Part shown: positions 51,710-64,000 of the stretch, piece after piece
Numbering within the stretch: position 1 is the stretch's first letter
Layout of the letters: each line of letters begins with the position of its first letter
Source of the DNA: Fibrisoma limi BUZ 3
Lineage (GTDB): Bacteria; Bacteroidota; Bacteroidia; Cytophagales; Spirosomataceae
Assembly (NCBI RefSeq): GCF_000296815.2
Contig: NZ_CAIT01000009.1
Location: 1,674,001-1,738,000, forward strand
Length of the DNA stretch: 64,000 bases
Direction of reading: 5' to 3'
Program-made: the position numbers and the translations under genes
Notes under the pieces: generated by a model
The model's database searches: none
Seen by the model: only the letters and a program-made list of their open reading frames with translations
Told to the model about the DNA's origin: nothing

Positions 51710-51910
51710 CTATTTTTGGCCGGAGTCGTCAGAGCCTTTTTGGGCGTAGCTTAAAAAGGAGGGATTAGCGTCGTCGCAGCCGCCTGCGATTACGCTGACA
51801 TCATCTATCAGCAAACACAGGACAATGAGAATTGCGACCGCGCCCAAGCGAATCCGCTTTTGGCAGAAACACCTGGCTTGATAAGAAGACTCAAGACGGT
51901 TGCAGTGCAT
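51710..51910 (-). CDS. Possible small membrane protein overlapping ardC
   Basis: The 66-codon frame begins within the last codons of ardC (20-base overlap) and encodes one hydrophobic helix (LGAVAILIVLCLLIDDVSVIA). Translation coupling is possible. Without homologues it may be chance. Confidence 0.3.
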   Translation of the reverse strand: MHCNRLESSYQARCFCQKRIRLGAVAILIVLCLLIDDVSVIAGGCDDANPSFLSYAQKGSDDSGQK

Positions 51911-52829
51911 GCAGATATTCAACGGCCTTTTGCGCATGGGATGCGGCCTGGAAGATGAAACGTTTATCATCCTGCAAGGCTTGAAGCCAGGACTGAATGT
52001 AAGCGGCATGTTTGCTTTCCGGCATTGGTTCGAAGCCAAGATCAGCGGCCAGAAAACAGGCTCCCAGTTCAGCAACCAATTCTTCCTTGGCGTAGCCAGC
52101 GTCGCCGTAAGTTTTGCGGCCCAGATCCCGGTCTAGCCGGGACGGATGGCGGGTCCAGTGCGTGATTTCGTGAGCAAGCACGGCATAGTAGCTTTCGGCA
52201 CTCTCAAAGCTCTCAAAGGGCGGCATCTGGACGCGGTCGGTCGTGATCGAGTAAGCGGCCTGGCTGCCCGTATAAATGTCGGCTTTAGTCTGGGCAAAAA
52301 AGGTTTCAAGCTGTTCGTTGCGCGAAATCGGATTGACCGTTTCTGGTTCAGGACGTTTGTAGAATGCATCAGATAGCCCCTCGATCTGATCGGCATTGAA
52401 AACCACGTAACATTTGAGGAAGGGGATCTGACGGGCTTCCAACTCGCCCTGGTCGTTGGTGTCTTCCTTGATGATCTTATCGGCATAGACCACGTGCGTC
52501 CCTTTCTCGCCCTTGCGCACATTGGCTTTCAGTTCAACGGCCTGATTATAGGTCATCCAGTAAGGCGACGTATAACCCTGCTCGGCGGCCGTACCCCACA
52601 GCAGGAGCGTATTGACGCCCTGATAGGGAATGTCGTTCCAGCGAAGGGGGCGCTGGACATGACCACTTAGATGATCGGCGTTCCAGGGCTTGCGCCAGGT
52701 GAGATTGCCGCTCTCCAGATCGGTGATGATCTTGGCCGTCACGCGGGCGTAGATGTCGTTTTGCGGGCTAGCGCTGTCGGATGCGTTTCTATGGTTCGAT
52801 TGTCTTGAGCGTTGGCGGGTGGTGGTCAT
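51891..52829 (-). CDS. ArdC-like antirestriction / zincin protein (DUF1738)
   Basis: The 312-residue product begins at MTTTRQRS. The N-terminal ssDNA-binding domain is seen as DIYARVTAKIITDLESG and LTWRKPWN. The zincin-like domain has LAHEITHWTRHPSRLDRD (HExxH) and ELVAELGACFLAADLG. ArdC proteins shield incoming DNA from restriction. The ATG at 52829 has GGAG upstream; the earlier frame to 53057 is GC-rich and not supported. Typical plasmid/ICE gene. Confidence 0.85.
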   Translation of the reverse strand: MTTTRQRSRQSNHRNASDSASPQNDIYARVTAKIITDLESGNLTWRKPWNADHLSGHVQRPLRWNDIPYQGVNTLLLWGTAAEQGYTSPYWMTYNQAVELKANVRKGEKGTHVVYADKIIKEDTNDQGELEARQIPFLKCYVVFNADQIEGLSDAFYKRPEPETVNPISRNEQLETFFAQTKADIYTGSQAAYSITTDRVQMPPFESFESAESYYAVLAHEITHWTRHPSRLDRDLGRKTYGDAGYAKEELVAELGACFLAADLGFEPMPESKHAAYIQSWLQALQDDKRFIFQAASHAQKAVEYLHALQPS

Positions 52830-53064
52830 GTGGCGTTCTCCATTGGCTGAAGGGTTATGGGGAGGGCAACGCCCGGCTCTCAAGCGAATGAACCGGCGAA
52901 CGTCGCGCGGCCGGAATTTTGTCTCGCGAGGAAAAGGCCGCAGGCCTTGGGGAAAATTCTGGTTGGTGGAATGAGCGGGCCGGGTACAGTCCCGCGCCCA
53001 TCCTTCAGGCGAGGGGAACACATGCCCCCCTGCCCGTGGCTCAAGCGTGGCGAACAACAGCCGC

Positions 53065-53538
53065 CTATCCGGGCATCAGCCCGTCATCGGCAAAGGACAG
53101 GTAGTTGTGCGGGGTAACAATCAGATGATCGAGCACGGCAATATCAAGCAGTTTACCGCCGTCCTTGAGCTTGCGGGTCAGCACCTTGTCCGGTTCGCTG
53201 GGTGTCAGATTGCCGCTGGGATGATTGTGGGCCAGAATGAGGCTCGTAGCGCGGGCTTTGAGAGCGGTGGCAAAGATGACTTTGGGATCGGCCAGGCAGG
53301 ATGATATACCGCCAGTCGCAATGTCAGAGACGGCCAGACAGTGATTGTTCTGGTCAAGAAGCAGGATTTTGAACTGTTCGACCAGCTCCATGCGGTTCAG
53401 GTCCCACATGGTGCGGAGAACTTCGTAAGCGGTTGAAGATTGCCGGATTTGGATGCGGTCCTGATAGGGAGCCGGATTGCGATAGATAATCTCGACCTCA
53501 TTCACCATGAACAGGGATTGCAGACTGAGCTGGTTCAA
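53065..53538 (-). CDS. RadC/JAB-domain protein
   Basis: The 157-residue product has the metal-binding motif HNHPSGNLTPSEPD near residue 103 and the later DHLIVTPHNYLSFADDG, as in RadC-type JAB proteins of mobile elements. The start is a TTG with GGAGA six bases before it. An ATG at 53508 is an alternative. The N-terminal RadC helix-hairpin-helix is missing, as usual for plasmid forms. Function is unknown. Confidence 0.82.
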   Translation of the reverse strand: MNQLSLQSLFMVNEVEIIYRNPAPYQDRIQIRQSSTAYEVLRTMWDLNRMELVEQFKILLLDQNNHCLAVSDIATGGISSCLADPKVIFATALKARATSLILAHNHPSGNLTPSEPDKVLTRKLKDGGKLLDIAVLDHLIVTPHNYLSFADDGLMPG

Positions 53539-53547
53539 GGGCGTCTC

Positions 53548-54456
53548 CTACAGGTTCAGGCCAAGCGTGTGCATGTGCCAGGCGTTCACGTCCTTGTGGG
53601 GCGCATAGATGCGGTTCATGCGTTTGTGCGTGAGATCGTTCTGTGTTTTGAAGAAATCCGCGAGTATTCCGGTAGCATCCTGACCGGCTTTATCGTTATC
53701 GAGCCAGGTGTAAGCGACGCGGTAGCCGTAACCCTGCATGTAGGGCCCAACCTGCTTTAAACAGGCCAGAGAATTTAGAATGATGGTGTCGCCCTTAAAC
53801 CGGTTACCCTTGAACTGCGCGATAGCGGACAGGTAATCCATCATGCCCTCAAAGATGTGAATGGTTTCTGGTTTAGGATTCCTGCCGCGAATGAAGGAGA
53901 TGGCCTTGGGACCGAGCGTTCCTTTAAAATACGGGTTTCGCAGCTCGTAACCGCCCTCTTCGTTGTCAAGACCTAAAGCAAAAAGGTTTTTACCTGTGCG
54001 CTGGTTGTAGACGTAGACTTCTTTCAAATATTGATCGGCCAGTTCAAGCGGGATACCGCGTTTTTCCAGATAGTGGATCAAACCCAGTCGCTGGATGGAC
54101 CTGGTCTTTTTTATGATCAGGCTGGCTTCGTTCTCGGCGGGTGTTTCGGGGTAAACAGGCTCAAAAACATATGGTCCGAGGCCAATGTTTTTCAGCCAGC
54201 GCAGAGCGTCGGAAACGGTATCGGCTTCGCGGGTGAATTTGAGGTAGGCTTGCGCGAAATCGACCGGATCGCCCCCTCGCCCGTCGCCAAAGTCATGCCA
54301 GCGATTGTCTTTGAGATAGACGTAAAAGCTGGGTGTTTTTTCCTGCCGGACAGGTGAGAGGTAGAGTTGCTTCGTGGCAGTTGTCTTCCGGGGGTGGATG
54401 CCAAGTCGGTTCAGAATTTCGGCAATAGAAATCTCTTTCGCCTGATCGATGTTCAT
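53548..54456 (-). CDS. Toprim-domain primase-like protein
   Basis: The 302-residue product has a DnaG-type N-terminal fold (LYLSPVRQEKTPSFYVYLKD, WHDFGDGRGGDPVDFAQAYL), but the usual zinc cysteines are absent. A Toprim domain follows with the metal residues HIFEGMMDYLSA and AYTWLDNDKAGQDATG. It probably primes or helps replicate the excised element. The ATG at 54456 follows AGGAGG by a good distance. A Met at 54471 lies before that site. Confidence 0.82.
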   Translation of the reverse strand: MNIDQAKEISIAEILNRLGIHPRKTTATKQLYLSPVRQEKTPSFYVYLKDNRWHDFGDGRGGDPVDFAQAYLKFTREADTVSDALRWLKNIGLGPYVFEPVYPETPAENEASLIIKKTRSIQRLGLIHYLEKRGIPLELADQYLKEVYVYNQRTGKNLFALGLDNEEGGYELRNPYFKGTLGPKAISFIRGRNPKPETIHIFEGMMDYLSAIAQFKGNRFKGDTIILNSLACLKQVGPYMQGYGYRVAYTWLDNDKAGQDATGILADFFKTQNDLTHKRMNRIYAPHKDVNAWHMHTLGLNL

Positions 54457-54498
54457 GGCGACCTCCTGCAAAATGATGAAAAATGATTTGAGAGTTAC

Positions 54499-54687
54499 TT
54501 AGCGCTCAAGCTGGCGTTCAATAAATTTGTCAAGTTCTGAACGACGATAACGAACCGCTCGGCCCACCTTGAGCGGCTTTAAATCATAGCGCTTTGTACA
54601 ATCCCACACGGCCAGAGTATTCGGGGAAATGCGGAGGTATTTGGCCGCTTCCTTTCGATCTAATAGGGTTTCATTCGTGGTCGGCAT
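54499..54687 (-). CDS. AlpA/excisionase-like HTH DNA-binding protein
   Basis: The 62-residue product is a MerR-like helix-turn-helix: LLDRKEAAKYLRISPNTLAVW, then PLKVGRAVRYRRSELDKFIE. Small proteins of this kind control integrase genes or direct excision. The ATG at 54687 is preceded by AGGGGG. It is upstream of the primase on the same strand. Confidence 0.8.
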   Translation of the reverse strand: MPTTNETLLDRKEAAKYLRISPNTLAVWDCTKRYDLKPLKVGRAVRYRRSELDKFIERQLER

Positions 54688-55005
54688 GTTATCCCCCTGT
54701 CTATATATGATTACGCCACGTGAAGTAGGAATATAATCATGATACAAGGAATTAATACCTACAGTCAATCAAAAACGGGATTCGTTAAAACTAAACAAGA
54801 ACTAAGAAGTTGGGTAAAAAACGGTAAAACCAACAGGCTGAGAACCGCCAATAATGCGGTACCGGCTCATTTAGCGATAAGCTGTGGTAGATATAAGTGC
54901 TTGAAAAGATTTGCTGGAGGGGAGCAACTTTGAACGGACGACTTCTAGCCTATTGAAAAAACAGTGTAGCTAGGACAGTAATTGTTATTTTGTTTTTATT
55001 GACAG
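54688..55005. other. Divergent control region without a clear gene
   Basis: It separates the minus-strand replication genes from the plus-strand gene at 55064. A 64-codon frame at 54739-54933 has no recognised features. Confidence 0.45.
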
Positions 55006-55022
55006 GTACACTATTTGTGTAC
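55006..55022. promoter_or_regulatory. Perfect GTACAC-N5-GTGTAC dyad
   Basis: A 6-5-6 inverted repeat lies 41 bases before the ATG at 55064 and overlaps the region just after a TTGACA at 54999-55004. It looks like an operator on the promoter of that gene. Confidence 0.5.
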
Positions 55023-55063
55023 AGGATACAGAAACCGCTCTCTTTGCCGTCAGATTAGCTTTC

Positions 55064-55453
55064 ATGACATCCCTATTTAAGTTGTTTTCTCAAAGTTGCG
55101 GTTTACCATTAAAAGAAGCCCAACTGTTCTTAGGCACGAGCGTTGACACGACCAAATCATGGTGGTCAGGTCGCCGGAATCCGCCGGAAGCGATCTTAGA
55201 AAAACTGGTTGACCTGTCGATCAATCAGGATATCGCAGCTCAAGAGCTGTTGCTGCAATTGGAAGCATTAGGCAAGAAGAATAAAAAGCAGCATATTACC
55301 TTGAAGGCATATACGTTGGATTCTCAGGCACAGGCTATTGGATGGCCATCGGCCAATGCTTATATGGCCGTTATTCGAAAAGCTGTTGAGAAAATGCCGA
55401 TAGAACTTGCTATGCGCTTGGTATTAATGACTGATAAGAACAAGGTATCCTAA
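55064..55453 (+). CDS. Putative HTH-like protein of unknown function
   Basis: The 129-residue product has a helix-turn-helix-like stretch, LKEAQLFLGTSVDTTKSWWSGRRNPP, followed by helices. Such short proteins in mobile elements are often regulators. No certain family. It faces the integrase gene tail to tail, 48 bases away. Confidence 0.55.
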   Translation: MTSLFKLFSQSCGLPLKEAQLFLGTSVDTTKSWWSGRRNPPEAILEKLVDLSINQDIAAQELLLQLEALGKKNKKQHITLKAYTLDSQAQAIGWPSANAYMAVIRKAVEKMPIELAMRLVLMTDKNKVS

Positions 55454-55501
55454 ATAATGCATAATAACAGCAACACTGCGTTTGCGTTGGTTGTGATAGC
55501 A

Positions 55502-56686
55502 TCACCTTGCTAGCACATTATCAATATAATCAGCATACTCCTGCATCATTTTTGTACGTTGGGGCAAAAACTGGGCGCGGTCATATGCACGGTCGACACC
55601 ACTTTTAGGAACGTGTGCCAGTTGCCGATCCGCAATGTCATGCGGGTAGCCCAACTTTTCCTTTAAAATCCCCAAGGCCAACGATCGGAATCCATGACCG
55701 GTCATTTTACCGTTATAGCCCATCCGCTTGATGGCAACCAGCATCGTGTTTTTGTTCATGGGCTTTTTGGGGTTGTAATATCCGGGAAAGATAAATTCCC
55801 GGTGCGCATTCAATGCGGACAGCTCTCGAAAAATCGCCAGCGATTGTTGCGATAATGGGACGATATGAGGAAGATTCATCTTCATTCGCTCGGCCGGAAT
55901 AACCCACATCGCCTTGTCAAAATTGATTTCGTTCCATCTAGCTTCTACGAGCTCACCTGTACGCACGAACGTCAGAAGTAATAATCTTAGTGCCAGAAAA
56001 GTCTGTCGATGAACGTGAGCCTGATAATCCGTCAGGCGAGCGAGAAATTCAGGAAACTCATCGACAGAAATAGATGCGTAATGCCCTCGCTTAAATTTCT
56101 TCATCGCAGCCTCTAACCCATACGTGGGATCACGTTCTGCCCGACCGGTCGCGATGGCGTATTTAAAAACATGGCTACACACAGCCTTCATACGACGCGA
56201 AAGATCGGGAGCTGTCTTTTCAATCTTTTGCAGGCAATTCAACATCATCATGGGCTGGATATCCGCTAGCGAAAAACTGCCCAAGCACGGAAATATGTAT
56301 TTCTCAAAGCGGTGTTTAATGATATCGGCGTGTTTGGGCTTCCATAAAGGCTTCTGCTTTTCATGCCATTCTATCGCCATCGCTCTAAAATCGAGCTTTT
56401 GGTTTAGAGCCTGGATCTGAGCCGCCTGTAAACGTTTCAAGACGGGATCAATGCCAGCCTTTATGTCTCGCTTAATCTCGTCTTTGGCCTTACGGGCATC
56501 CGCTACTGAAACCGCTGGATAAGCGCCAATTGAAATCCGCTTTTCCTTGCCCTGAAGTCGATACTTCAACCGCCAGAATTTGGTCCCGTACGGAGTGACT
56601 TCTAGATATAGCCCTTCACCGTCTGCAAGCTTATAAGGTTTCGGTTTGGGTTTCGCAGTCTGACACGTCATGTTTGACAAAGCCAT
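55502..56686 (-). CDS. P4-type tyrosine recombinase (integrase)
   Basis: The 394-residue product has the DUF4102-type arm-binding domain (KLADGEGLYLEVTPYGTKFW), a core-binding domain, and a catalytic domain. Catalytic residues are visible as Arg in LTFVRTGELVEARW, His-x-x-Arg in MTGHGFRSLALGIL, and His in DRQLAHVPKSG with the nucleophilic Tyr in RAYDRAQF. It starts at the ATG 56686, with AGGAGG upstream. Such integrases use tRNA or gene 3' ends. The matching att repeat was not found in the window. Confidence 0.9.
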   Translation of the reverse strand: MALSNMTCQTAKPKPKPYKLADGEGLYLEVTPYGTKFWRLKYRLQGKEKRISIGAYPAVSVADARKAKDEIKRDIKAGIDPVLKRLQAAQIQALNQKLDFRAMAIEWHEKQKPLWKPKHADIIKHRFEKYIFPCLGSFSLADIQPMMMLNCLQKIEKTAPDLSRRMKAVCSHVFKYAIATGRAERDPTYGLEAAMKKFKRGHYASISVDEFPEFLARLTDYQAHVHRQTFLALRLLLLTFVRTGELVEARWNEINFDKAMWVIPAERMKMNLPHIVPLSQQSLAIFRELSALNAHREFIFPGYYNPKKPMNKNTMLVAIKRMGYNGKMTGHGFRSLALGILKEKLGYPHDIADRQLAHVPKSGVDRAYDRAQFLPQRTKMMQEYADYIDNVLAR

Positions 56687-56737
56687 GATCACACCTCCTC
56701 TCCATTGACCAGACGGTTCACGTCGAGCGGCAACTTC

Positions 56738-57896: not shown

Positions 57897-58412
57897 TCAT
57901 GATTCCTTTGTCCGTAGGTATCTAGAAAACCATTGGAGATCCCGCTCCAACGTAATTTTATTATCGTAAATATCTCGTCCTTCTACTTTCAGGGTAATCA
58001 ATGCCAGTTGCCGCCGAGCGTGGTTGATTTCGCTTTCGCCCTCATGCTCATCAAAGCGGGTTTCAAAAACGACCAAATGCGCATTAGGCAGCACAACGCG
58101 CTTTACGGCATTAGTGATCGCTACCCGCATGTACGATTTGGGATCAAGATCAAGGCAATCATCAATAGCCGTGTAGGGCTGGCCATCTTTTATAAAGAGC
58201 AAACGATCAATAATGAGGGGACCTAAGCCATTATTGCGGATATGAACGGCAAGTTGCTTGTTATAATCAGGTAAATCAATCTGGCCTAACGGTTTGAGTG
58301 ATTTTTCATTATGCGTTCGTTGCAGGTATAATTGATAGAACGTCGCCAGCAACGCTAATATCGAAATAATGATGGCCAAGATGCCCTCCCTAGCCGAATC
58401 AGGATACCGCAA
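57897..58412 (-). CDS. Small membrane-anchored protein, copy 1 of a duplicated gene
   Basis: The 171-residue product has one N-terminal membrane helix (ILAIIISILALLATFYQLYL) and a soluble domain of about 140 residues. That domain holds SLKPLGQIDLPDYNKQLAVH and EHEGESEINHARRQLALITL. It is strikingly similar to the product at 60337-60813. A TTG at 58379 with GGAGG-like bases upstream matches the start of the other copy and may be the real start. Family unknown. Confidence 0.6.
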   Translation of the reverse strand: MRYPDSAREGILAIIISILALLATFYQLYLQRTHNEKSLKPLGQIDLPDYNKQLAVHIRNNGLGPLIIDRLLFIKDGQPYTAIDDCLDLDPKSYMRVAITNAVKRVVLPNAHLVVFETRFDEHEGESEINHARRQLALITLKVEGRDIYDNKITLERDLQWFSRYLRTKES

Positions 58413-58490: not shown

Positions 58491-59468
58491 TCATGGTTCC
58501 AGCGTCCAGACCACCAAAGCCAGCCTGGCTTTAATGCGCTGCAAGGTTTGAAGGACTGCTTCTTCAGCCGGTAACTCCCCGAACACCAGATTTTTGAACG
58601 AGCCGTAGTACGTACTGCGCAGTTCCGGCCAAACACGGTCTAAATCACCGAACAACAAGGCTTGTGCAGGATGCGGATACAACCAGTCCTTGTTGTTTCG
58701 AAAACTGACTTCATCGTCTTTAGCCACGTTGTCTAGCATGTCAACAAACGCACCGGAATCAAAAAACGTCGACAGATCGGCTTGTTGTAGCAATTGGTGG
58801 AGGTCATACACGTGGCGAATTTTATTCCGTAAATCCATGAGTGGTTTTTCTGTGTAGGAAAACCGAACCAGGCTCATGATTTTCTCGCAAAGCGTCCGTG
58901 TAGGGGCTAATAAGGGCACGTCAAACGGCAACAGATCATATTGAATGGCGAAGTCGCCTTGTCCTCTGCTCTGCATCATCTGATAGATAAACGAACTGAC
59001 CTGTCCTGTCGTCATCGGTTCCGACGAGCCCAGCCAACTCGATTCCAGGATGATCAGGTCACGCACCTGCCCAAACTCACCGGTAAACAGCCGTGAATAC
59101 GAATGAGCTGTTTTGCGGATCATCCCCTTTTTATTAGTAATTCCTGGAATGTCTTGTTCGGGTAGCCATTCCGATACGGCAGTGCTAATTCGTTTGAGCC
59201 GCTCTTTGAGTTGGTTAGCTGATAAAGACGGGTCCTTTAAAAGCACTAAGTCTATGTCTTCTGAAAAGCGATGGATAAACGAGAAACACTTCGATAAAGC
59301 GGTTCCCCCTTTAAACACGGTGAATTCAGCCAATGGCCCCGTAAAAATGCGTTGCAAAGCCAGCGTCACCCAATAGTCTTTCTCGACGTAAATTTCGGGC
59401 AAGTTCATTTGTTGCGCGGTGATACTGACCGCATCGGCAAAGAGGTCGCGGTTTTCGTGCAGCTTCAT
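58491..59468 (-). CDS. AbiEii-type nucleotidyltransferase toxin
   Basis: The 325-residue product has the nucleotidyltransferase core FTVFKGGTALSKCFSFIHRF followed by FSEDIDLVLL (DxD metal site), as in AbiEii/MenT toxins. These enzymes add nucleotides to tRNA or block growth as part of phage defence. The start overlaps the antitoxin stop by four bases (ATGA), so translation is coupled. Confidence 0.85.
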   Translation of the reverse strand: MKLHENRDLFADAVSITAQQMNLPEIYVEKDYWVTLALQRIFTGPLAEFTVFKGGTALSKCFSFIHRFSEDIDLVLLKDPSLSANQLKERLKRISTAVSEWLPEQDIPGITNKKGMIRKTAHSYSRLFTGEFGQVRDLIILESSWLGSSEPMTTGQVSSFIYQMMQSRGQGDFAIQYDLLPFDVPLLAPTRTLCEKIMSLVRFSYTEKPLMDLRNKIRHVYDLHQLLQQADLSTFFDSGAFVDMLDNVAKDDEVSFRNNKDWLYPHPAQALLFGDLDRVWPELRSTYYGSFKNLVFGELPAEEAVLQTLQRIKARLALVVWTLEP

Positions 59469-60193
59469 CGAATATGCCAGTCGGATGCGGTTGGTAACAG
59501 GCTATCGTTAATACCCAGCTCAAACGTCGTGAGCGGATTGAGGCTACTGCTTAGTTTGTCAATGCCTTTCTTTACGTTCAAGTCCATCAGGATCGCCCCC
59601 AACAAGGCCCTCACCCGTGGCGGGTAAGCCAGCGCATAGTCAATCACCATCTGCCGCTGTGCGGGTGTAAGCACGCTCAGGCGGCTTTTAAAAATAGCCA
59701 GGGCATTCTCTATATCGACATCAGGAATTTGTTTGAGGTCTTTTATCGCATCCAGAAAGCCTAGCATCTGATAATTGGCATCCGTGACATCGACATAGCT
59801 CTTGACCGGCGTTGCTTTGACCGCTCCGTTGTTAACAAAAATACGCCGGTTGCGGCTGGCTATTTGCATCACGGCGGGCACTTGAGTGGTCAGCCCTAAT
59901 TGATTATAGAGATAGTCGCCGGTGATATAAGCCGTTCGTTTGCCGTTTTGATAAAGATAGGGTTTGAGAAGCTGCTGCTCGTCCGGTTTTTTCTCGCCAA
60001 AAACGGTTTTCTTAGGCTTATAAAAAATGCCCTTGGCAAGTTTTTTAATGACACCTTTCTTTTGCAGCCGTTCGAGCGCTTTAGCCGCTGTTAAATACTC
60101 CTGTTTGGGTATGGCCAGTTGGCCATATCCAAAGCTGGTGTCTTCGGGTAGCTCCTTAACCTGTTGGCTTACTTTATCGGAAACGCGGGTCAT
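59465..60193 (-). CDS. AbiEi-type antitoxin (DUF6088-like)
   Basis: The 242-residue product begins with a winged-helix part (SFGYGQLAIPKQEYLTAAKA, VIKKLAKGIFYKPKKT) and continues with RTAYITGDYLYNQLGLTTQV as in AbiEi/DUF6088 antitoxins. Start at MTRVSD (60193) agrees with a consensus promoter just upstream. A Met at 60271 would lie upstream of that promoter. Confidence 0.82.
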   Translation of the reverse strand: MTRVSDKVSQQVKELPEDTSFGYGQLAIPKQEYLTAAKALERLQKKGVIKKLAKGIFYKPKKTVFGEKKPDEQQLLKPYLYQNGKRTAYITGDYLYNQLGLTTQVPAVMQIASRNRRIFVNNGAVKATPVKSYVDVTDANYQMLGFLDAIKDLKQIPDVDIENALAIFKSRLSVLTPAQRQMVIDYALAYPPRVRALLGAILMDLNVKKGIDKLSSSLNPLTTFELGINDSLLPTASDWHIR

Positions 60194-60199
60194 GGAACA

Positions 60200-60253
60200 A
60201 GTATACCCTAAAGCTTTACAATTGTCAAGTTTTTTGATCAAAAGACTTGACAA
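60200..60253 (-). promoter_or_regulatory. Consensus sigma-70 promoter with embedded dyad operator
   Basis: On the minus strand TTGACA (60223-60228) and TATACT (60200-60205) are 17 bases apart, near-perfect for a sigma-70 promoter. Only six bases separate the -10 from the ATG, so transcription would start at or next to the A of ATG. A 9-bp inverted repeat (60222-60230 with 60245-60253) covers the -35, as expected for autorepression by the antitoxin. Confidence 0.65.
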
Positions 60254-60336
60254 CAAGAAACTACCCCCCAATAGATGGGAGATAAATGAAACATATCGAT
60301 GGCTATCGGTACAGTTTAATGGGCTAAGTTGCTCGC

Positions 60337-60813
60337 TTAGCAGGCTCCCATGTACCGGGCGAACCAGTTGAAATTACGCTGGAGCGTAATTTTATTATCG
60401 TAAATATCCCGCCCTTCTACCTTCAGGGTGATCGATGCCAGTTGCCGCCGAGCGTGGTTGATTTCGCTCTCGCCTTCATGCTCACCAAATTGGGTTTCAA
60501 AAACGACCAGATGCGCATGGGGAAGCACCACGCGTTTTACAGCATCATTGATGGCCATCCGCATGTACGACCTCGGATGAAGATCAAGGCAATCGTCAAT
60601 GTTCGTATAGGACTGGCCGTCTTTGACGAATGTCAGTCGGTCTATGATCAAGGGGCCGAGACCATTATTGCGGACATGAACGGCAAGCTGCTTGTTGAAG
60701 TCGGGCAGATCAATCTGACCCAGTGGCTTGAGTGACTTTTCGTTATGCGTTCGTTGCAGGTATAACTGATAGAACGTGGCCAGCAACGCTACTACTGAAA
60801 TCAAAATCGCCAA
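60337..60813 (-). CDS. Small membrane-anchored protein, copy 2 of a duplicated gene
   Basis: The 158-residue product starts at a TTG with GGAGG five bases before it. It has one membrane helix (ILISVVALLATFYQLYL) and the same soluble domain as the product at 57897-58412, with long identical stretches such as RQLASITLKVEGRDIYDNKI differing at single positions. It lies immediately downstream of the radical SAM gene and upstream of the AbiE operon, all on the minus strand. Confidence 0.6.
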   Translation of the reverse strand: MAILISVVALLATFYQLYLQRTHNEKSLKPLGQIDLPDFNKQLAVHVRNNGLGPLIIDRLTFVKDGQSYTNIDDCLDLHPRSYMRMAINDAVKRVVLPHAHLVVFETQFGEHEGESEINHARRQLASITLKVEGRDIYDNKITLQRNFNWFARYMGAC

Positions 60814-60881: not shown

Positions 60882-62222
60882 CTAGACTATCATTCTATAC
60901 TCCTGCAACAATTTCAATCGCTCCCGCGCCTGCAATTCATAGATTAGGGGAATAAAGCGGTGATAGAGGCTGCATTGCGGGTCTTTACCGTTGACCCGGT
61001 ACACGGGACAGCCGCTGGTGCAAACCGATCGGTAACGGCAGGATTGGCAATCCTGCGACTTCATGTCTTCGTAATGGCTGCCCTGCTCGATCATATCGAC
61101 CAAATCCATATCCGTATCGAAGAGGCTATAGGATAGCTGCGTATGATCGCCAAAATGGACATGGCAATAATTGACCGTGCCATCGACATAGATCGCTCCG
61201 CCGGAAAATCCGGATGCGCAGGTCTGAAAGCCTAACTCGCTGGGTTTAAGATCGCAGAACTGATGACGCTGGGAAAAGCGCCAGCCCTGCCCGATAGCCT
61301 CTTTCATCAACGCGTAGGATACCGATAAGTAGTTGTCCAGCAATTCCGCATTAATGGCTTCGCCTTTGACAATCGAATAGCGAAACGGAACGTCCAGATC
61401 AATCAGGTAACGCGTTAGACGCGGCAACCCTGCCAGGTTGCTGTTGGTCACGACCGTATTGGTTGATACCGGAATGTTATGCGCTAGCAAGGTCCGCAAA
61501 TTCCGGTCAATGAGGGCAAAGCTTCCGGCACCGGATTTAAAGGTGCGCGTGTTGTCGTGATCCACATCCAACCCATCTAGCGAAATCCCGTAGCTGATAC
61601 CGTGCTCCTTCGAGAATTCCACTATCTCATCGGTTAAAATGGTCAGATTGGTGATAAACGAGCATTCTAACTGACAACCCATATCCTGCAAGGTTCTTTT
61701 GGCCTGGGGAATAAAAGCCTTCCAAGCTTTGAACTGGCTGAGGGGTTCTCCTCCGGCCAAGCGCAGTTTGATGGATTTGAGACCTCGTTTCTGAACCGTC
61801 TCGACCATCTTGTTTAGCAATTGCTGACGGGTTGTCTCTGCCATGCCCGACGTGGTGTTGAGCGTCGAGATGTAGCAATAGCTACAGGTCAGATTGCAGC
61901 GATTGGTGGTGTGAATCCAGAAGTTGAGCGATTTCGGGTTAGCTGGTTTGCGCGGTGCACTAAACTGCTGGTCAAACCGGATGATTTCAGTTCGAGCCAG
62001 CAGGTTTAGAAACTCCTCAAGCACCTCAGCCTCAATACCGAGATTTTCGCTAAGGGCTGATATGGAAGTTTGATTGTCAATGGCCGCTAAAATCTCATAT
62101 TGCGCCCGATTGAGAATCCGTAACGAGTTTGGATAAGCACAATTGACGACAAAGACATGCTGGTCGTCAATGGGCCTGACTAGGAGCTGTGGCGATTTGA
62201 TCGGTACAAATGTCTTCATCAT
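60882..62222 (-). CDS. Radical SAM/SPASM peptide maturase with PqqD-like domain
   Basis: The 446-residue product has three parts. Residues 1-88 resemble a PqqD-like RiPP recognition element (RILNRAQYEILAAIDNQTSI). Residues 105-330 form the radical SAM core with CNLTCSYC (Cys 109, 113, 116), then RLAGGEPL. Residues 335-417 form a SPASM region with Cys 335, 353, 392, 395, 401, 405 and 417, able to hold auxiliary Fe-S clusters. Such enzymes modify ribosomal peptides, for instance by forming thioether or carbon cross-links. Its start overlaps the precursor-like gene by 56 bases. No protease or exporter gene is visible alongside. Confidence 0.85.
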   Translation of the reverse strand: MMKTFVPIKSPQLLVRPIDDQHVFVVNCAYPNSLRILNRAQYEILAAIDNQTSISALSENLGIEAEVLEEFLNLLARTEIIRFDQQFSAPRKPANPKSLNFWIHTTNRCNLTCSYCYISTLNTTSGMAETTRQQLLNKMVETVQKRGLKSIKLRLAGGEPLSQFKAWKAFIPQAKRTLQDMGCQLECSFITNLTILTDEIVEFSKEHGISYGISLDGLDVDHDNTRTFKSGAGSFALIDRNLRTLLAHNIPVSTNTVVTNSNLAGLPRLTRYLIDLDVPFRYSIVKGEAINAELLDNYLSVSYALMKEAIGQGWRFSQRHQFCDLKPSELGFQTCASGFSGGAIYVDGTVNYCHVHFGDHTQLSYSLFDTDMDLVDMIEQGSHYEDMKSQDCQSCRYRSVCTSGCPVYRVNGKDPQCSLYHRFIPLIYELQARERLKLLQEYRMIV

Positions 62223-62355
62223 CGTCTGAAGTGGAGTAACCTATGCAATCGCAATTGGCATTGGCCGAGCTTGCCATCAGCCTTTGGCGTCCGAGTTGCT
62301 GTTCGAGCAAGGTAAAATCATCGAAGAGAATGTTCTGGGGCGAAGTCGAGGTCAT
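62167..62355 (-). CDS. Candidate RiPP precursor peptide
   Basis: The 62-residue product begins MTSTSPQNILFDDFTLLEQQ (leader-like and hydrophilic with an amphipathic helix) and continues with a short Cys-containing part: residues 32-38 read NANCDCI, and 49-53 ICTDQ. An acidic patch DDDED (44-48) lies between. Cys 35, 37 and 50 are natural targets for radical SAM cross-linking. The gene sits directly before and overlaps the maturase. A leader cleavage site such as a GG motif is not seen. No SD is present. Confidence 0.5.
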   Translation of the reverse strand: MTSTSPQNILFDDFTLLEQQLGRQRLMASSANANCDCIGYSTSDDDEDICTDQIATAPSQAH

Positions 62356-62470: not shown

Positions 62471-62478
62471 TAGCTTTG
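62471..62478 (+). promoter_or_regulatory. TAnnTTTG promoter element of the HTH gene
   Basis: TAGCTTTG matches the Bacteroidota -7 element and precedes the ATG at 62482 by 3 bases or the ATG at 62500 by 21 bases. The second start would give a normal leader. Confidence 0.45.
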
Positions 62479-62481
62479 TGG

Positions 62482-62883
62482 ATGGACACAACGCCATCAA
62501 TGATACATCACGGTCGCAACGTGAAACGGATACGGGAGATCCTGGGCGTCAAGCAGGATTTTCTGGCAACTTCGTTAGGGCTGAGTCAGCAGGCCATTTC
62601 TCAACTTGAGCAGAAGGAGGTGTTGGATGCCCCATCTTTACAGAGGGTATCCAAAGCCTTGGGCGTGTCAGAAGACGCTATTAAAAACTTCAGCGAAGAG
62701 TCGGCTATCCAGATTTTTTCTAACACTTATCACGATCATGCCGCCTCGGTCCAGTATAATTTCAATCCGGTTGATAAGTGGCTCGAAGCGATTGAGGAAA
62801 ACAAAAAACTCTACGAACGGCTGTTGCAAGCGGAGCGTGAAAAGAACGAGCTGTTACAGAAACTATTAGCGTCAAAACAATAA
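62482..62883 (+). CDS. Helix-turn-helix regulator with C-terminal coiled coil
   Basis: The 133-residue product has an XRE-type HTH (about residues 18-70: ILGVKQDFLATSLGLSQQAI, SLQRVSKALGVSED). A coiled-coil tail follows (EENKKLYERLLQAEREKNEL). Starts at 62476 (TTG), 62482 and 62500 are possible; homologues usually begin with MIHHGRNVKR-like residues, which fits 62500. It is divergent from the precursor-maturase genes and probably controls them through the nearby tandem dyads. Confidence 0.75.
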   Translation: MDTTPSMIHHGRNVKRIREILGVKQDFLATSLGLSQQAISQLEQKEVLDAPSLQRVSKALGVSEDAIKNFSEESAIQIFSNTYHDHAASVQYNFNPVDKWLEAIEENKKLYERLLQAEREKNELLQKLLASKQ

Positions 62884-63093: not shown

Positions 63094-63504
63094 CTATTCA
63101 TGTTTGACAAGGTCATGCAACCGCAGCCAAAACAGCTGCATACCCCTGACCATCTCTTGCAAATCAGCAAACCCGTTGGGCTTAATCAGATAAGCCTTCG
63201 CACCGGCCACGTATGCTTTACTGATGTACGGGCCGTAACTGGCCGTGCTCAGCATCAGGGTTGGAATCCGTCGGTAGCGCTCGGATTGCTGTAATTCGGC
63301 CAATGTCTCAAACCCATCCAGTCGGGGCATGTTCACATCCAGGATAATCAAGGCGGGTAGGACGGGCATAGCTCTTAGCTGCTGCAATAAGCTTTCTCCG
63401 TTGTCGGCTACGCGAAGTTGTACGCCGGGTACGACCTGCTCAAAGGCATCACGGATTAACGCTTGATCGTCTTCGTCATCTTCGGCAATCAGTACAAAAA
63501 TCAT
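63094..63504 (-). CDS. Stand-alone response regulator (receiver domain only)
   Basis: The 136-residue product is a CheY-like receiver: acidic pocket EDDEDD near residue 10, phospho-accepting Asp in LIILDVNMPRLDG (around residue 58), Thr/Ser in MLSTASYGPY and Lys in KAYLIKPNGF. There is no output domain, so it acts by protein contact, like Rcp1 or Spo0F. No kinase gene is visible in the window. Confidence 0.88.
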   Translation of the reverse strand: MIFVLIAEDDEDDQALIRDAFEQVVPGVQLRVADNGESLLQQLRAMPVLPALIILDVNMPRLDGFETLAELQQSERYRRIPTLMLSTASYGPYISKAYVAGAKAYLIKPNGFADLQEMVRGMQLFWLRLHDLVKHE

Positions 63505-63597
63505 TTTGCTTTGGGCTTCAGGTAGCTAAGATAACAAATGCGACCTAATTTGTTTGTAAAGCTGACTTAATCAAGGTAAACCCCACGCCTAACTAAT

Positions 63598-64000
63598 TTA
63601 CAAATTGTTGTTTTGCCGGTGCGGTTGGACCGCTACATCAAGCCAGAAAGAACGCACCTGGCTTAAGAGATACTTATACTCCTGAAACGAAACCGGCTTG
63701 ACCATGTAAGCATTGGCACCAACAGCGTAATAATCGTCCACCTGATCAAGCATGGATGAGCCTGTTAGGACCAGAATCTGAATGGAGCGAAAGCGTTTTT
63801 CCGCCCGTAGCTCCTGAATGAACTCATAGCCAGAATAAGGGGGGATATTGGCATCCATTAAGATTAGTACCGGCCGGGGGCCTGGACCGTTCAGATACGT
63901 GTACATCTCTTCACGGCTGCGGGCACAGATTAATTGACAGTTGGCCCAGCTTTCTTGAACGACCCGCTCAATGATCAAACATTCATCTTCGTCATCATCG
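63598..64000 (-). CDS. Response regulator receiver domain, N-terminus beyond window
   Basis: The frame is open to the window edge and reads DDDEDECLIIERVVQESW inward, so the first residues lie past base 64000. The phospho-accepting Asp is in VLILMDANIPPYSGY, Thr/Ser in VLTGSSMLDQVDD and Lys in NAYMVKPVSFQEY. It is similar to the receiver at 63094 (93 bases apart, same strand) and likely arose by duplication. Confidence 0.85.
   Translation of the reverse strand, partial: DDDEDECLIIERVVQESWANCQLICARSREEMYTYLNGPGPRPVLILMDANIPPYSGYEFIQELRAEKRFRSIQILVLTGSSMLDQVDDYYAVGANAYMVKPVSFQEYKYLLSQVRSFWLDVAVQPHRQNNNL

What the first reader, a model, noticed from the sequence alone, without database searches (positions are those of the whole stretch)
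60882..62355. Candidate undescribed RiPP: cysteine-containing peptide with a PqqD-radical SAM-SPASM maturase
Seen: a 62-codon gene with Cys 35, 37 and 50, and an acidic run between them, is followed on the same strand by a 446-residue protein. That protein shows a PqqD-like start, CxxxCxxC radical SAM motif and seven conserved-looking C-terminal cysteines. Known: this domain order occurs in enzymes that modify ribosomal peptides. Inferred: the short protein is the substrate. Its core (NANCDCI, ICTDQ) does not match a precursor family I recognise, and it lacks a GG leader end. No exporter or protease is nearby, so maturation would use genes elsewhere or act inside the cell.
Basis: partly seen in the sequence, partly recalled or inferred. 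Interest (0 to 1): 0.85.

Follow-up and report, generated by a model that had tools for sequence, protein, structure and literature searches.

The report
Modified-peptide operon with membrane partner
This bacterium carries a small peptide gene, the enzyme that probably cross-links that peptide, and a membrane protein that goes with them wherever they were found; an outline of the peptide-enzyme pair is very probably in print already, but the membrane partner and the swappable control genes look new.

Summary
In detail: a 62-codon peptide gene (62355-62167) overlaps a 446-aa radical SAM/SPASM gene (62222-60882) on the minus strand. They are a conserved precursor-maturase pair: 49 of 49 loci examined have a peptide with an ILFDD-like leader and an Asp-Cys core at this place; a strict motif hits 48 of 49 true sites and 0 of 3346 control windows. 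Cys35/37 lie in the conserved motif, Cys50 does not. "Undescribed" is too strong: Kostenko et al. 2022 report, in silico only, a recombinase + rSAM + Asp-Cys-peptide cluster that is very probably this family. Not found there: (1) a third gene, a predicted membrane-anchored Ig-like protein (60813-60337), in 49 of 49 loci and in exactly the 28 of 222 family genomes that have the maturase; (2) two alternative upstream genes, never together: a serine recombinase (31) or a divergent XRE protein (16 of the other 18), swapped together with the peptide's leader half; (3) a two-dyad res-like site before the recombinase; (4) recombinase and peptide in one open frame in 7 loci; (5) defence-type genes within 6 kb downstream in 32 of 49. 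Likeliest: a mobile, regulated RiPP acting in or at the producing cell through its membrane partner. Chemistry and role are unproven.

The parts
62167..62355 (-). RiPP precursor peptide, 62 aa; leader motif NILFDD (residues 8-13), core motif N-C-D-C (residues 34-37)
   Evidence: homologues in 49 of 49 loci, control, profile search
62245..62256 (-). codons of the conserved core N34-C35-D36-C37, the probable site of modification; module-swap border lies just upstream
   Evidence: D36 and C37 invariant in 23 aligned peptides; codons vary synonymously; border at -49 to -33 nt
60882..62222 (-). radical SAM/SPASM maturase, 446 aa, with N-terminal RRE-like domain (about residues 13-84)
   Evidence: Pfam Radical_SAM E=2e-15; invariant Cys; model and structural matches to CteB, TigE, anSME
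60337..60813 (-). c1: 158-aa protein, predicted N-terminal membrane helix (2-27) and Ig-like beta sandwich; obligate third gene
   Evidence: 49 of 49 loci; same 28 of 222 genomes as the maturase; model pLDDT 92
57897..58412 (-). second copy of c1 (82% identical), beyond the AbiE pair
62476..62883 (+). divergent XRE-type HTH protein; the only copy in this genome; takes the place that a serine recombinase has in other loci
   Evidence: HTH_3 E=2e-8; single match in own genome; 16 of 18 recombinase-less loci have such a gene
59465..60271 (-). AbiEi-type antitoxin (neighbouring cargo, not part of the core operon)
   Evidence: PADLOC AbiEi E=4e-49
58491..59468 (-). AbiEii-type toxin (neighbouring cargo, not part of the core operon)
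   Evidence: PADLOC AbiEii E=2e-100, Pfam AbiEii E=2e-29

Best explanation
The operon makes a RiPP. The ILFDD leader is bound by the maturase's RRE-like domain (inferred). The radical SAM/SPASM centre modifies the Asp-Cys unit(s) of the core, most likely by thioether bonds from Cys to a nearby residue such as Asp (inferred from the nearest named relatives). The product works in or at the envelope of the producing cell together with the co-inherited membrane protein c1, as its receptor, effector or immunity partner (inferred). Expression is held by one of two interchangeable control modules: a divergent XRE protein (this window) or a serine recombinase with two dyads in its own promoter region (31 of 49 loci) (arrangement shown, control inferred). 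The set travels between genomes and sits beside toxin-antitoxin and anti-phage genes, so a defence or addiction role on mobile elements is the likeliest purpose (inferred). Shown here: the conserved triad, selection on the peptide, the module swap, the dyads and the neighbourhood. Not shown: the chemistry, export, any activity.
For: Peptide at 49 of 49 loci with control and in 27 of 28 maturase genomes, 0 of the other 194. c1 in 49 of 49 loci and in exactly the same 28 of 222 genomes; it stays adjacent even where it has moved to the other side of the recombinase promoter (8 loci). Invariant radical SAM and SPASM Cys in 47; structural matches to CteB Z 22.6 (374 residues, rmsd 5.7) and TigE Z 21.9 (378, 3.6) over nearly the whole chain. 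Best NCBIfam models PapB and QhpD, E=2e-33 each, under cutoff; PapB makes Cys-Asp/Glu thioethers (abstract seen in the listing). Recombinase or XRE, never both, swapped with the leader half. Two dyads: both in 26, one in 4, none in 1 of 31 recombinase loci, none in 18 others. Defence-type genes within 6 kb downstream in 32 of 49 loci; 10 of 20 scanned ORFs against 1 of 20 random control ORFs. No shared exporter or protease cluster seen in the flanks.
Against: No experiment of any kind. Defence neighbours may only mark a shared insertion hotspot; my 20 downstream ORFs were picked by eye (7 of 10 hits in the first set, 3 of 10 in the second). An exporter elsewhere in the genome was not looked for. 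c1 has no relative of known function, and its side of the membrane is inferred only. Distant c1-like proteins occur in genomes without the maturase (16 of 148, weak scores), so the fold itself is not specific. Two of 49 maturases are broken (L032, L040) and c1 is cut short in L021, L025 and L074.
Confidence: 0.55

Rival explanations
1. A secreted antibacterial RiPP (bacteriocin-like), exported and trimmed by genes elsewhere in the genome, with c1 as the self-immunity membrane protein.
For: Small membrane protein right after the maturase in 41 of 49 loci; variable core repeats (1 to 5 Asp-Cys units); patchy distribution (28 of 222 genomes).
Against: No exporter or protease cluster shared by the loci. 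No strong c1 match without the maturase in 194 genomes, though immunity genes are often found alone in non-producers (recalled).
Confidence: 0.22
2. The peptide and maturase serve the recombinase: the modified peptide (in 7 loci one open frame with the recombinase) regulates or tags a site-specific recombinase that moves or resolves the element.
For: Recombinase directly upstream in 31 of 49 loci, in frame with the peptide in 7; its dyads lie only at its own gene in 11 of 12 places of 13 genomes; catalytic residues invariant in 31 (roles recalled).
Against: 18 of 49 loci, this window among them, have no recombinase beside the peptide and still keep peptide, maturase and c1. In the fused loci an in-frame Met before the leader could start the peptide alone. 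No second dyad pair in the held flanks.
Confidence: 0.1
3. A peptide-derived cofactor or metal-binding peptide, as pyrroloquinoline quinone or mycofactocin are, that serves a household enzyme.
For: Some precursors are only 39-40 aa and end within six residues after D-C-D-C (L025, L033, L034); two Cys flanking Asp could bind metal (inference).
Against: Patchy distribution (28 of 222 family genomes; 4 of 395 in the phylum sample at E<=1e-100), several copies in some genomes and a defence/integrase neighbourhood do not suit a household cofactor; no oxidoreductase cluster shared by the loci.
Confidence: 0.06

Closest known systems
'Cluster 59' of Kostenko et al. 2022 (PMC9062424): recombinase + radical SAM enzyme + peptide with repeated Asp-Cys motif
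   Same: Three-gene set as described in section 4; Asp-Cys in 49 of 49 peptides here; recombinase in 31 of 49 loci.
   Different: The section read does not mention a membrane protein, an XRE alternative, a res-like site, fusions, the module swap or defence neighbours. Sequence identity with Cluster 59 could not be checked (no supplement access).
PapB-type ranthipeptide maturases (NF047865)
   Same: Joint best NCBIfam match, E=2e-33; radical SAM plus SPASM; PapB joins Cys to Asp/Glu (abstract seen in the listing).
   Different: 115.9 bits against a cutoff of 340; the Cys-X3-Asp repeats of the PapB substrate (recalled) are not the repeat seen here; different partner genes.
QhpD, quinohemoprotein amine dehydrogenase maturase (TIGR03906)
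   Same: Joint best NCBIfam match, E=2e-33; SPASM enzyme whose product has Cys-Asp/Glu thioethers (recalled).
   Different: 115.7 bits against a cutoff of 453; substrate there is an enzyme subunit (recalled), here a free short peptide.
CteB, thioether-forming maturase (5why, 5wgg)
   Same: Z 22.6 over 374 residues including the N-terminal domain.
   Different: 15% identity; precursor of another type (the SCIFF type, recalled).
Resolvases with two-subsite res (Sin, beta recombinase; recalled)
   Same: PF00239 resolvase E=5e-25; two dyads upstream of its own gene.
   Different: 34-bp dyads about 124 bp apart; no second site found in the held flanks; followed by, or in one frame with, a RiPP precursor.

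Membership tests
Radical SAM/SPASM peptide maturase | CxxxCxxC plus the seven-Cys SPASM spacing | tested here: met
   All ten Cys invariant in 47 aligned sequences; Pfam Radical_SAM E=2e-15
Radical SAM/SPASM peptide maturase | RRE (PqqD-like) domain at the N-terminus | tested here: inconclusive
   Model shows three strands then three helices over residues 13-76 and aligns with CteB and TigE from residues 11 and 3; no Pfam PqqD hit up to E=1
RiPP | conserved short precursor adjacent to the modifying enzyme, with conserved leader and core | tested here: met
   49 of 49 loci; control 0 of 3346; 27 of 28 genomes
RiPP | peptide is actually modified | not testable with these tools
   needs expression and mass spectrometry
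PapB ranthipeptide maturase (NF047865) | score above the curated cutoff of 340 bits | tested here: not met
   115.9 bits
QhpD (TIGR03906) | score above the curated cutoff of 453 bits | tested here: not met
   115.7 bits
Kostenko Cluster 59 | recombinase + rSAM + peptide with conserved Asp-Cys | tested here: met
   Asp-Cys in 49 of 49 peptides, recombinase in 31 of 49 loci; this window has the XRE variant, no recombinase
Kostenko Cluster 59 | sequence membership in the published network cluster | not testable with these tools
Two-subsite resolvase system | two dyads near the recombinase gene | tested here: met
   both in 26, one in 4, none in 1 of 31 recombinase loci; none in 18 other loci
Two-subsite resolvase system | strand exchange at site I | not testable with these tools
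   needs an in vitro or plasmid assay
Viperin defence proteins (pVip) | match over the whole protein, no SPASM domain | tested here: not met
   PADLOC pVip matches residues 103-263 only (E=4e-17); SPASM Cys present

The most novel reading that the evidence does not exclude
A RiPP that works inside the producing cell as an anti-phage or addiction device: a radical-SAM-modified Asp-Cys peptide acting through a membrane-anchored Ig-like protein, carried among defence systems, whose control gene plus leader half is a plug-in module (an XRE protein, or a serine resolvase on its own res-like site that in some loci shares one open frame with the precursor).
Probability: 0.27. Interest if true: 0.88.

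Novelty: new variant of a known kind. Interest (0 to 1): 0.62.

Why it matters
It turns a short genome-mining entry into a testable three-gene system with a defined partner, a defined modification site and a natural series of swapped control modules. I found no paper in the held library that joins a serine recombinase to a radical SAM RiPP precursor other than Kostenko et al. 2022, and the one paper that holds RiPP, defense island, phage and radical SAM together is on lanthipeptides (listing only). An intracellular RiPP in defence islands would widen what such peptides are for.

Tried and rejected
N-C-D-C codons as a DNA site of the recombinase: rejected, the Asn, Cys and Asp codons vary synonymously between loci. 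Cassette ends made by the recombinase: not supported; besides sites I and II the matrix gives one weak hit (L035, +1956, score 14) in the held flanks, and homology among recombinase loci ends about 20 bp outside site I in 9 of 17 same-type pairs, further out in 5 at -1112 to -2584, and is broken across the peptide in the 3 pairs with L026. Solo sites elsewhere: 11 of 12 places in 13 genomes are at cassette recombinases; the twelfth has one mismatch, and the reversed control pattern gives 3 hits; the pattern also missed some known sites (G252, G242, G071), so it is not exhaustive. Maturase as a viperin: only the radical SAM core matches. Close relatives on plasmids, phages or viral contigs: plasmids and phages gave only rSAM proteins under 60% identity, viral contigs none. 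Fold of c1: best Z 7.1 (ApaG-like sandwiches), inside the range that unrelated models give; a listed or missing family proves nothing here; Pfam gave at most one member of 51 for any family. Recombinases outside the cassette (L108, L112, L114) have no precursor beside them. The two extra loci of the phylum search (L149, L150) match L028 and L031 by contig position and were not counted again. Rows left out: L078 and L079 (copies of L032 and L037); 2 of 49 maturases from the alignment because they are broken (L032, L040); 13 of 64 c1 members from the c1 alignment, fragments and near-copies; 26 of 49 peptides from the peptide profile.

Full report
What is there. On the minus strand a 62-codon ORF (62355-62167) overlaps by 56 nt a 446-codon ORF (62222-60882), followed after 68 nt by a 158-codon ORF, here c1 (60813-60337). 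A divergent XRE-type gene lies at 62476-62883. Beyond c1 are AbiEi and AbiEii (PADLOC E=4e-49 and 2e-100), a second c1 (57897-58412), then a tyrosine integrase (55502-56692), an HTH_17 protein, a primase-like protein, RadC and ArdC (Pfam): cargo beside an integrated element.

Relatives. The scan of named genomes gave 33 loci, mostly Spirosoma, Runella, Larkinella, Siphonobacter, Dyadobacter and Mucilaginibacter, with single loci in Flavobacterium, Emticicia, Arcicella and Fibrella and one Planctomycetota MAG contig. In the window's family 32 of 222 genomes match at E<=1e-20; four of these are weak (28-29% identity), 28 are strong. In an even sample of the phylum 4 of 395 genomes match at E<=1e-100. 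After removing duplicates I used 49 loci: L010-L042, L064-L077, L080 and the window as L081.

The peptide is real and belongs to the maturase. A frame with an ILFDD-like motif and a later Cys lies upstream of the maturase in 49 of 49 loci. Under a stricter rule it is found at 48 of 49 true sites and 0 of 3346 control windows; under the loose rule at 4 of 3346. A profile from 23 of the 49 peptides hits 27 of the 28 strong-maturase genomes and 0 of the other 194; the miss is G084, whose peptide is divergent. Over 14 close pairs chosen by me, which share loci, dN/dS is 0.25 in the leader and 0.18 in the core. M1, F11, D36 and C37 are invariant in the 23-row alignment. All 49 peptides contain Asp-Cys, one to five times; 40 contain C-D-C; 37 overlap the maturase gene. 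Cys50 is not conserved.

The maturase. Three radical SAM and seven SPASM Cys are invariant in 47 aligned sequences. NCBIfam's best models are PapB and QhpD, far under their cutoffs. The AlphaFold2 model (mean pLDDT 83, with some cluster-binding loops under 50) starts with a strand-and-helix domain of RRE layout. VIA-align 2, among Foldseek's own matches, gives Z 24.2 to anaerobic sulfatase-maturating enzyme (308 residues, rmsd 3.0) and Z 22.6 and 21.9 to CteB and TigE over nearly the whole chain. The abstract of PMC9413430, seen in the listing, says that PapB joins Cys to Asp or Glu. A Cys-Asp-type thioether is therefore my guess for the product.

A third, obligate gene. A c1 homologue is present in 49 of 49 loci: downstream on the same strand in 41 and, in 8 (L026-L031, L036, L040), divergent on the far side of the recombinase. 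Three of the 49 (L021, L025, L074) are short ORFs. Strong c1 matches (E<=1e-25) occur in exactly the 28 maturase genomes of 222; weak, distant c1-like matches occur more widely, in 16 of 148 genomes of the order without the maturase's c1. The model (51 of 64 members aligned, pLDDT 92) is a long N-terminal helix plus an Ig-like sandwich without an outstanding solved relative. Conserved basic residues just after the helix suggest that the domain is cytosolic (inference). A second c1 lies within 6 kb downstream in 11 of 49 loci, and in all 11 AbiE, Fic or DUF4143-ATPase genes lie between the copies.

Exchangeable control modules. Upstream is a co-directional serine recombinase in 31 of 49 loci; of the other 18, 16 have a divergent XRE protein, L022 and L080 show none; no locus has both. 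On the maturase tree the well-supported branches force at least 5 changes of the XRE label. In 13 of 13 pairs of loci with at least 76% identical DNA but different upstream modules (two XRE types count as different), homology begins 49 to 33 nt before the maturase start, just before the N-C-D-C codons. These pairs are not independent, and the border may only reflect ordinary recombination within the best-conserved stretch of the peptide gene. Best example: L064 (XRE) and L065 (recombinase) in one genome share 92% DNA from -49 to about +3560 and differ in the adjoining upstream genes, leader included. The upstream gene and leader half thus move as one unit, and core, maturase and c1 as another.

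The recombinase. PF00239 resolvase, E=5e-25; R8, S10, R50, D76, R77 and R80 are invariant in 31 (catalytic roles recalled). Two 34-bp dyads (consensus TGTTCAGGAGTAAACGATCGTTTACTCCTGAACA) lie about 180 and 56 nt before its start. A matrix from 25 sites finds both in 26, one in 4 and none in 1 of 31 recombinase loci and none in the 18 others; 2 hits in 859 kb of shuffled sequence. The 25 training sites match by construction; the other 31 of the 56 hits are untrained. In 13 genomes the central motif occurs at 12 places, 11 of them cassette recombinases. In the seven genomes searched with the recombinase itself, every match above 300 bits lies in a cassette (7 of 7). With no second site found nearby, promoter control or recombination in trans fits better than excision of the cassette. 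In 7 of 31 loci (L011, L018, L023, L065, L067, L069, L073) recombinase and peptide form one open frame.

Neighbourhood. Within 6 kb downstream, AbiE-family genes occur in 18 of 49 loci, Fic in 3 more, a PDC-S01-type ATPase in 4 more, and Olokun, Lamassu, Qat, Ssp, type IIG, type I or type II methyltransferase genes in 7 more: 32 of 49. Most AbiE, Fic and ATPase assignments outside the scanned examples rest on my sequence clusters. Of 20 non-AbiE downstream ORFs, picked by eye, 10 hit PADLOC at 1e-8 (7 of 10 and 3 of 10); L014, counted under AbiE, also has a Thoeris ThsA gene. Of 20 largest ORFs in random stretches of seven cassette-bearing genomes 1 hit, an SspA/DndA-like protein. Integrases of two clusters lie in the held flanks of 22 of 49 loci, one member of each confirmed by Pfam.

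What is known. Kostenko et al. [quoted passage not shown] It is very likely the same family. In the held library the searches 'radical SAM' + 'Asp-Cys' + 'recombinase' + 'peptide' and 'radical SAM' + 'Asp-Cys' + 'RiPP' return only that paper, and 'serine recombinase' + 'radical SAM' + 'precursor peptide' returns none. Subscription papers and preprints are mostly not held.

Judgement. RiPP precursor and maturase: about 0.9. c1 as a functional component: about 0.85. Cys-Asp-type thioether: about 0.5. Action in or at the producing cell: about 0.55. Defence or addiction role: about 0.3.

Noticed in passing
window 60222-60253: A dyad TTGTCAAG...CTTGACAA lies just upstream of AbiEi; similar dyads precede AbiEi in several other loci (for example L010, L011, L014, L020, L075, L076), perhaps the AbiEi operator.
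   Followed up: partly
window 51891-56692: Tyrosine integrase, HTH_17, primase-like, RadC and ArdC genes in a row: an integrated mobile element whose cargo side touches the second c1.
   Followed up: partly
window 63094-63978: Two small response-regulator genes in tandem upstream of the XRE gene.
   Followed up: no
L022, L071 (and L013): Precursors with several repeats of the Asp-Cys motif (five D-C units in L022 and L071).
   Followed up: no
L032 (Dyadobacter sp. CY261): Precursor frame with two leader-like motifs (LLFDE and LLFDD) beside a maturase broken by a stop.
   Followed up: no
L065 and L081, about 2-12 kb upstream of the maturase: Long tandem-repeat region, about 65-nt period judging from the many shifted blastn hits, in both loci.
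   Followed up: no
L108, L112, L114: Related serine recombinases (48-51% identical) standing alone in the same genomes without peptide or maturase.
   Followed up: partly
L035 (Phycisphaerales MAG): The only hit outside Bacteroidota; a horizontal transfer or a mis-binned contig.
   Followed up: no
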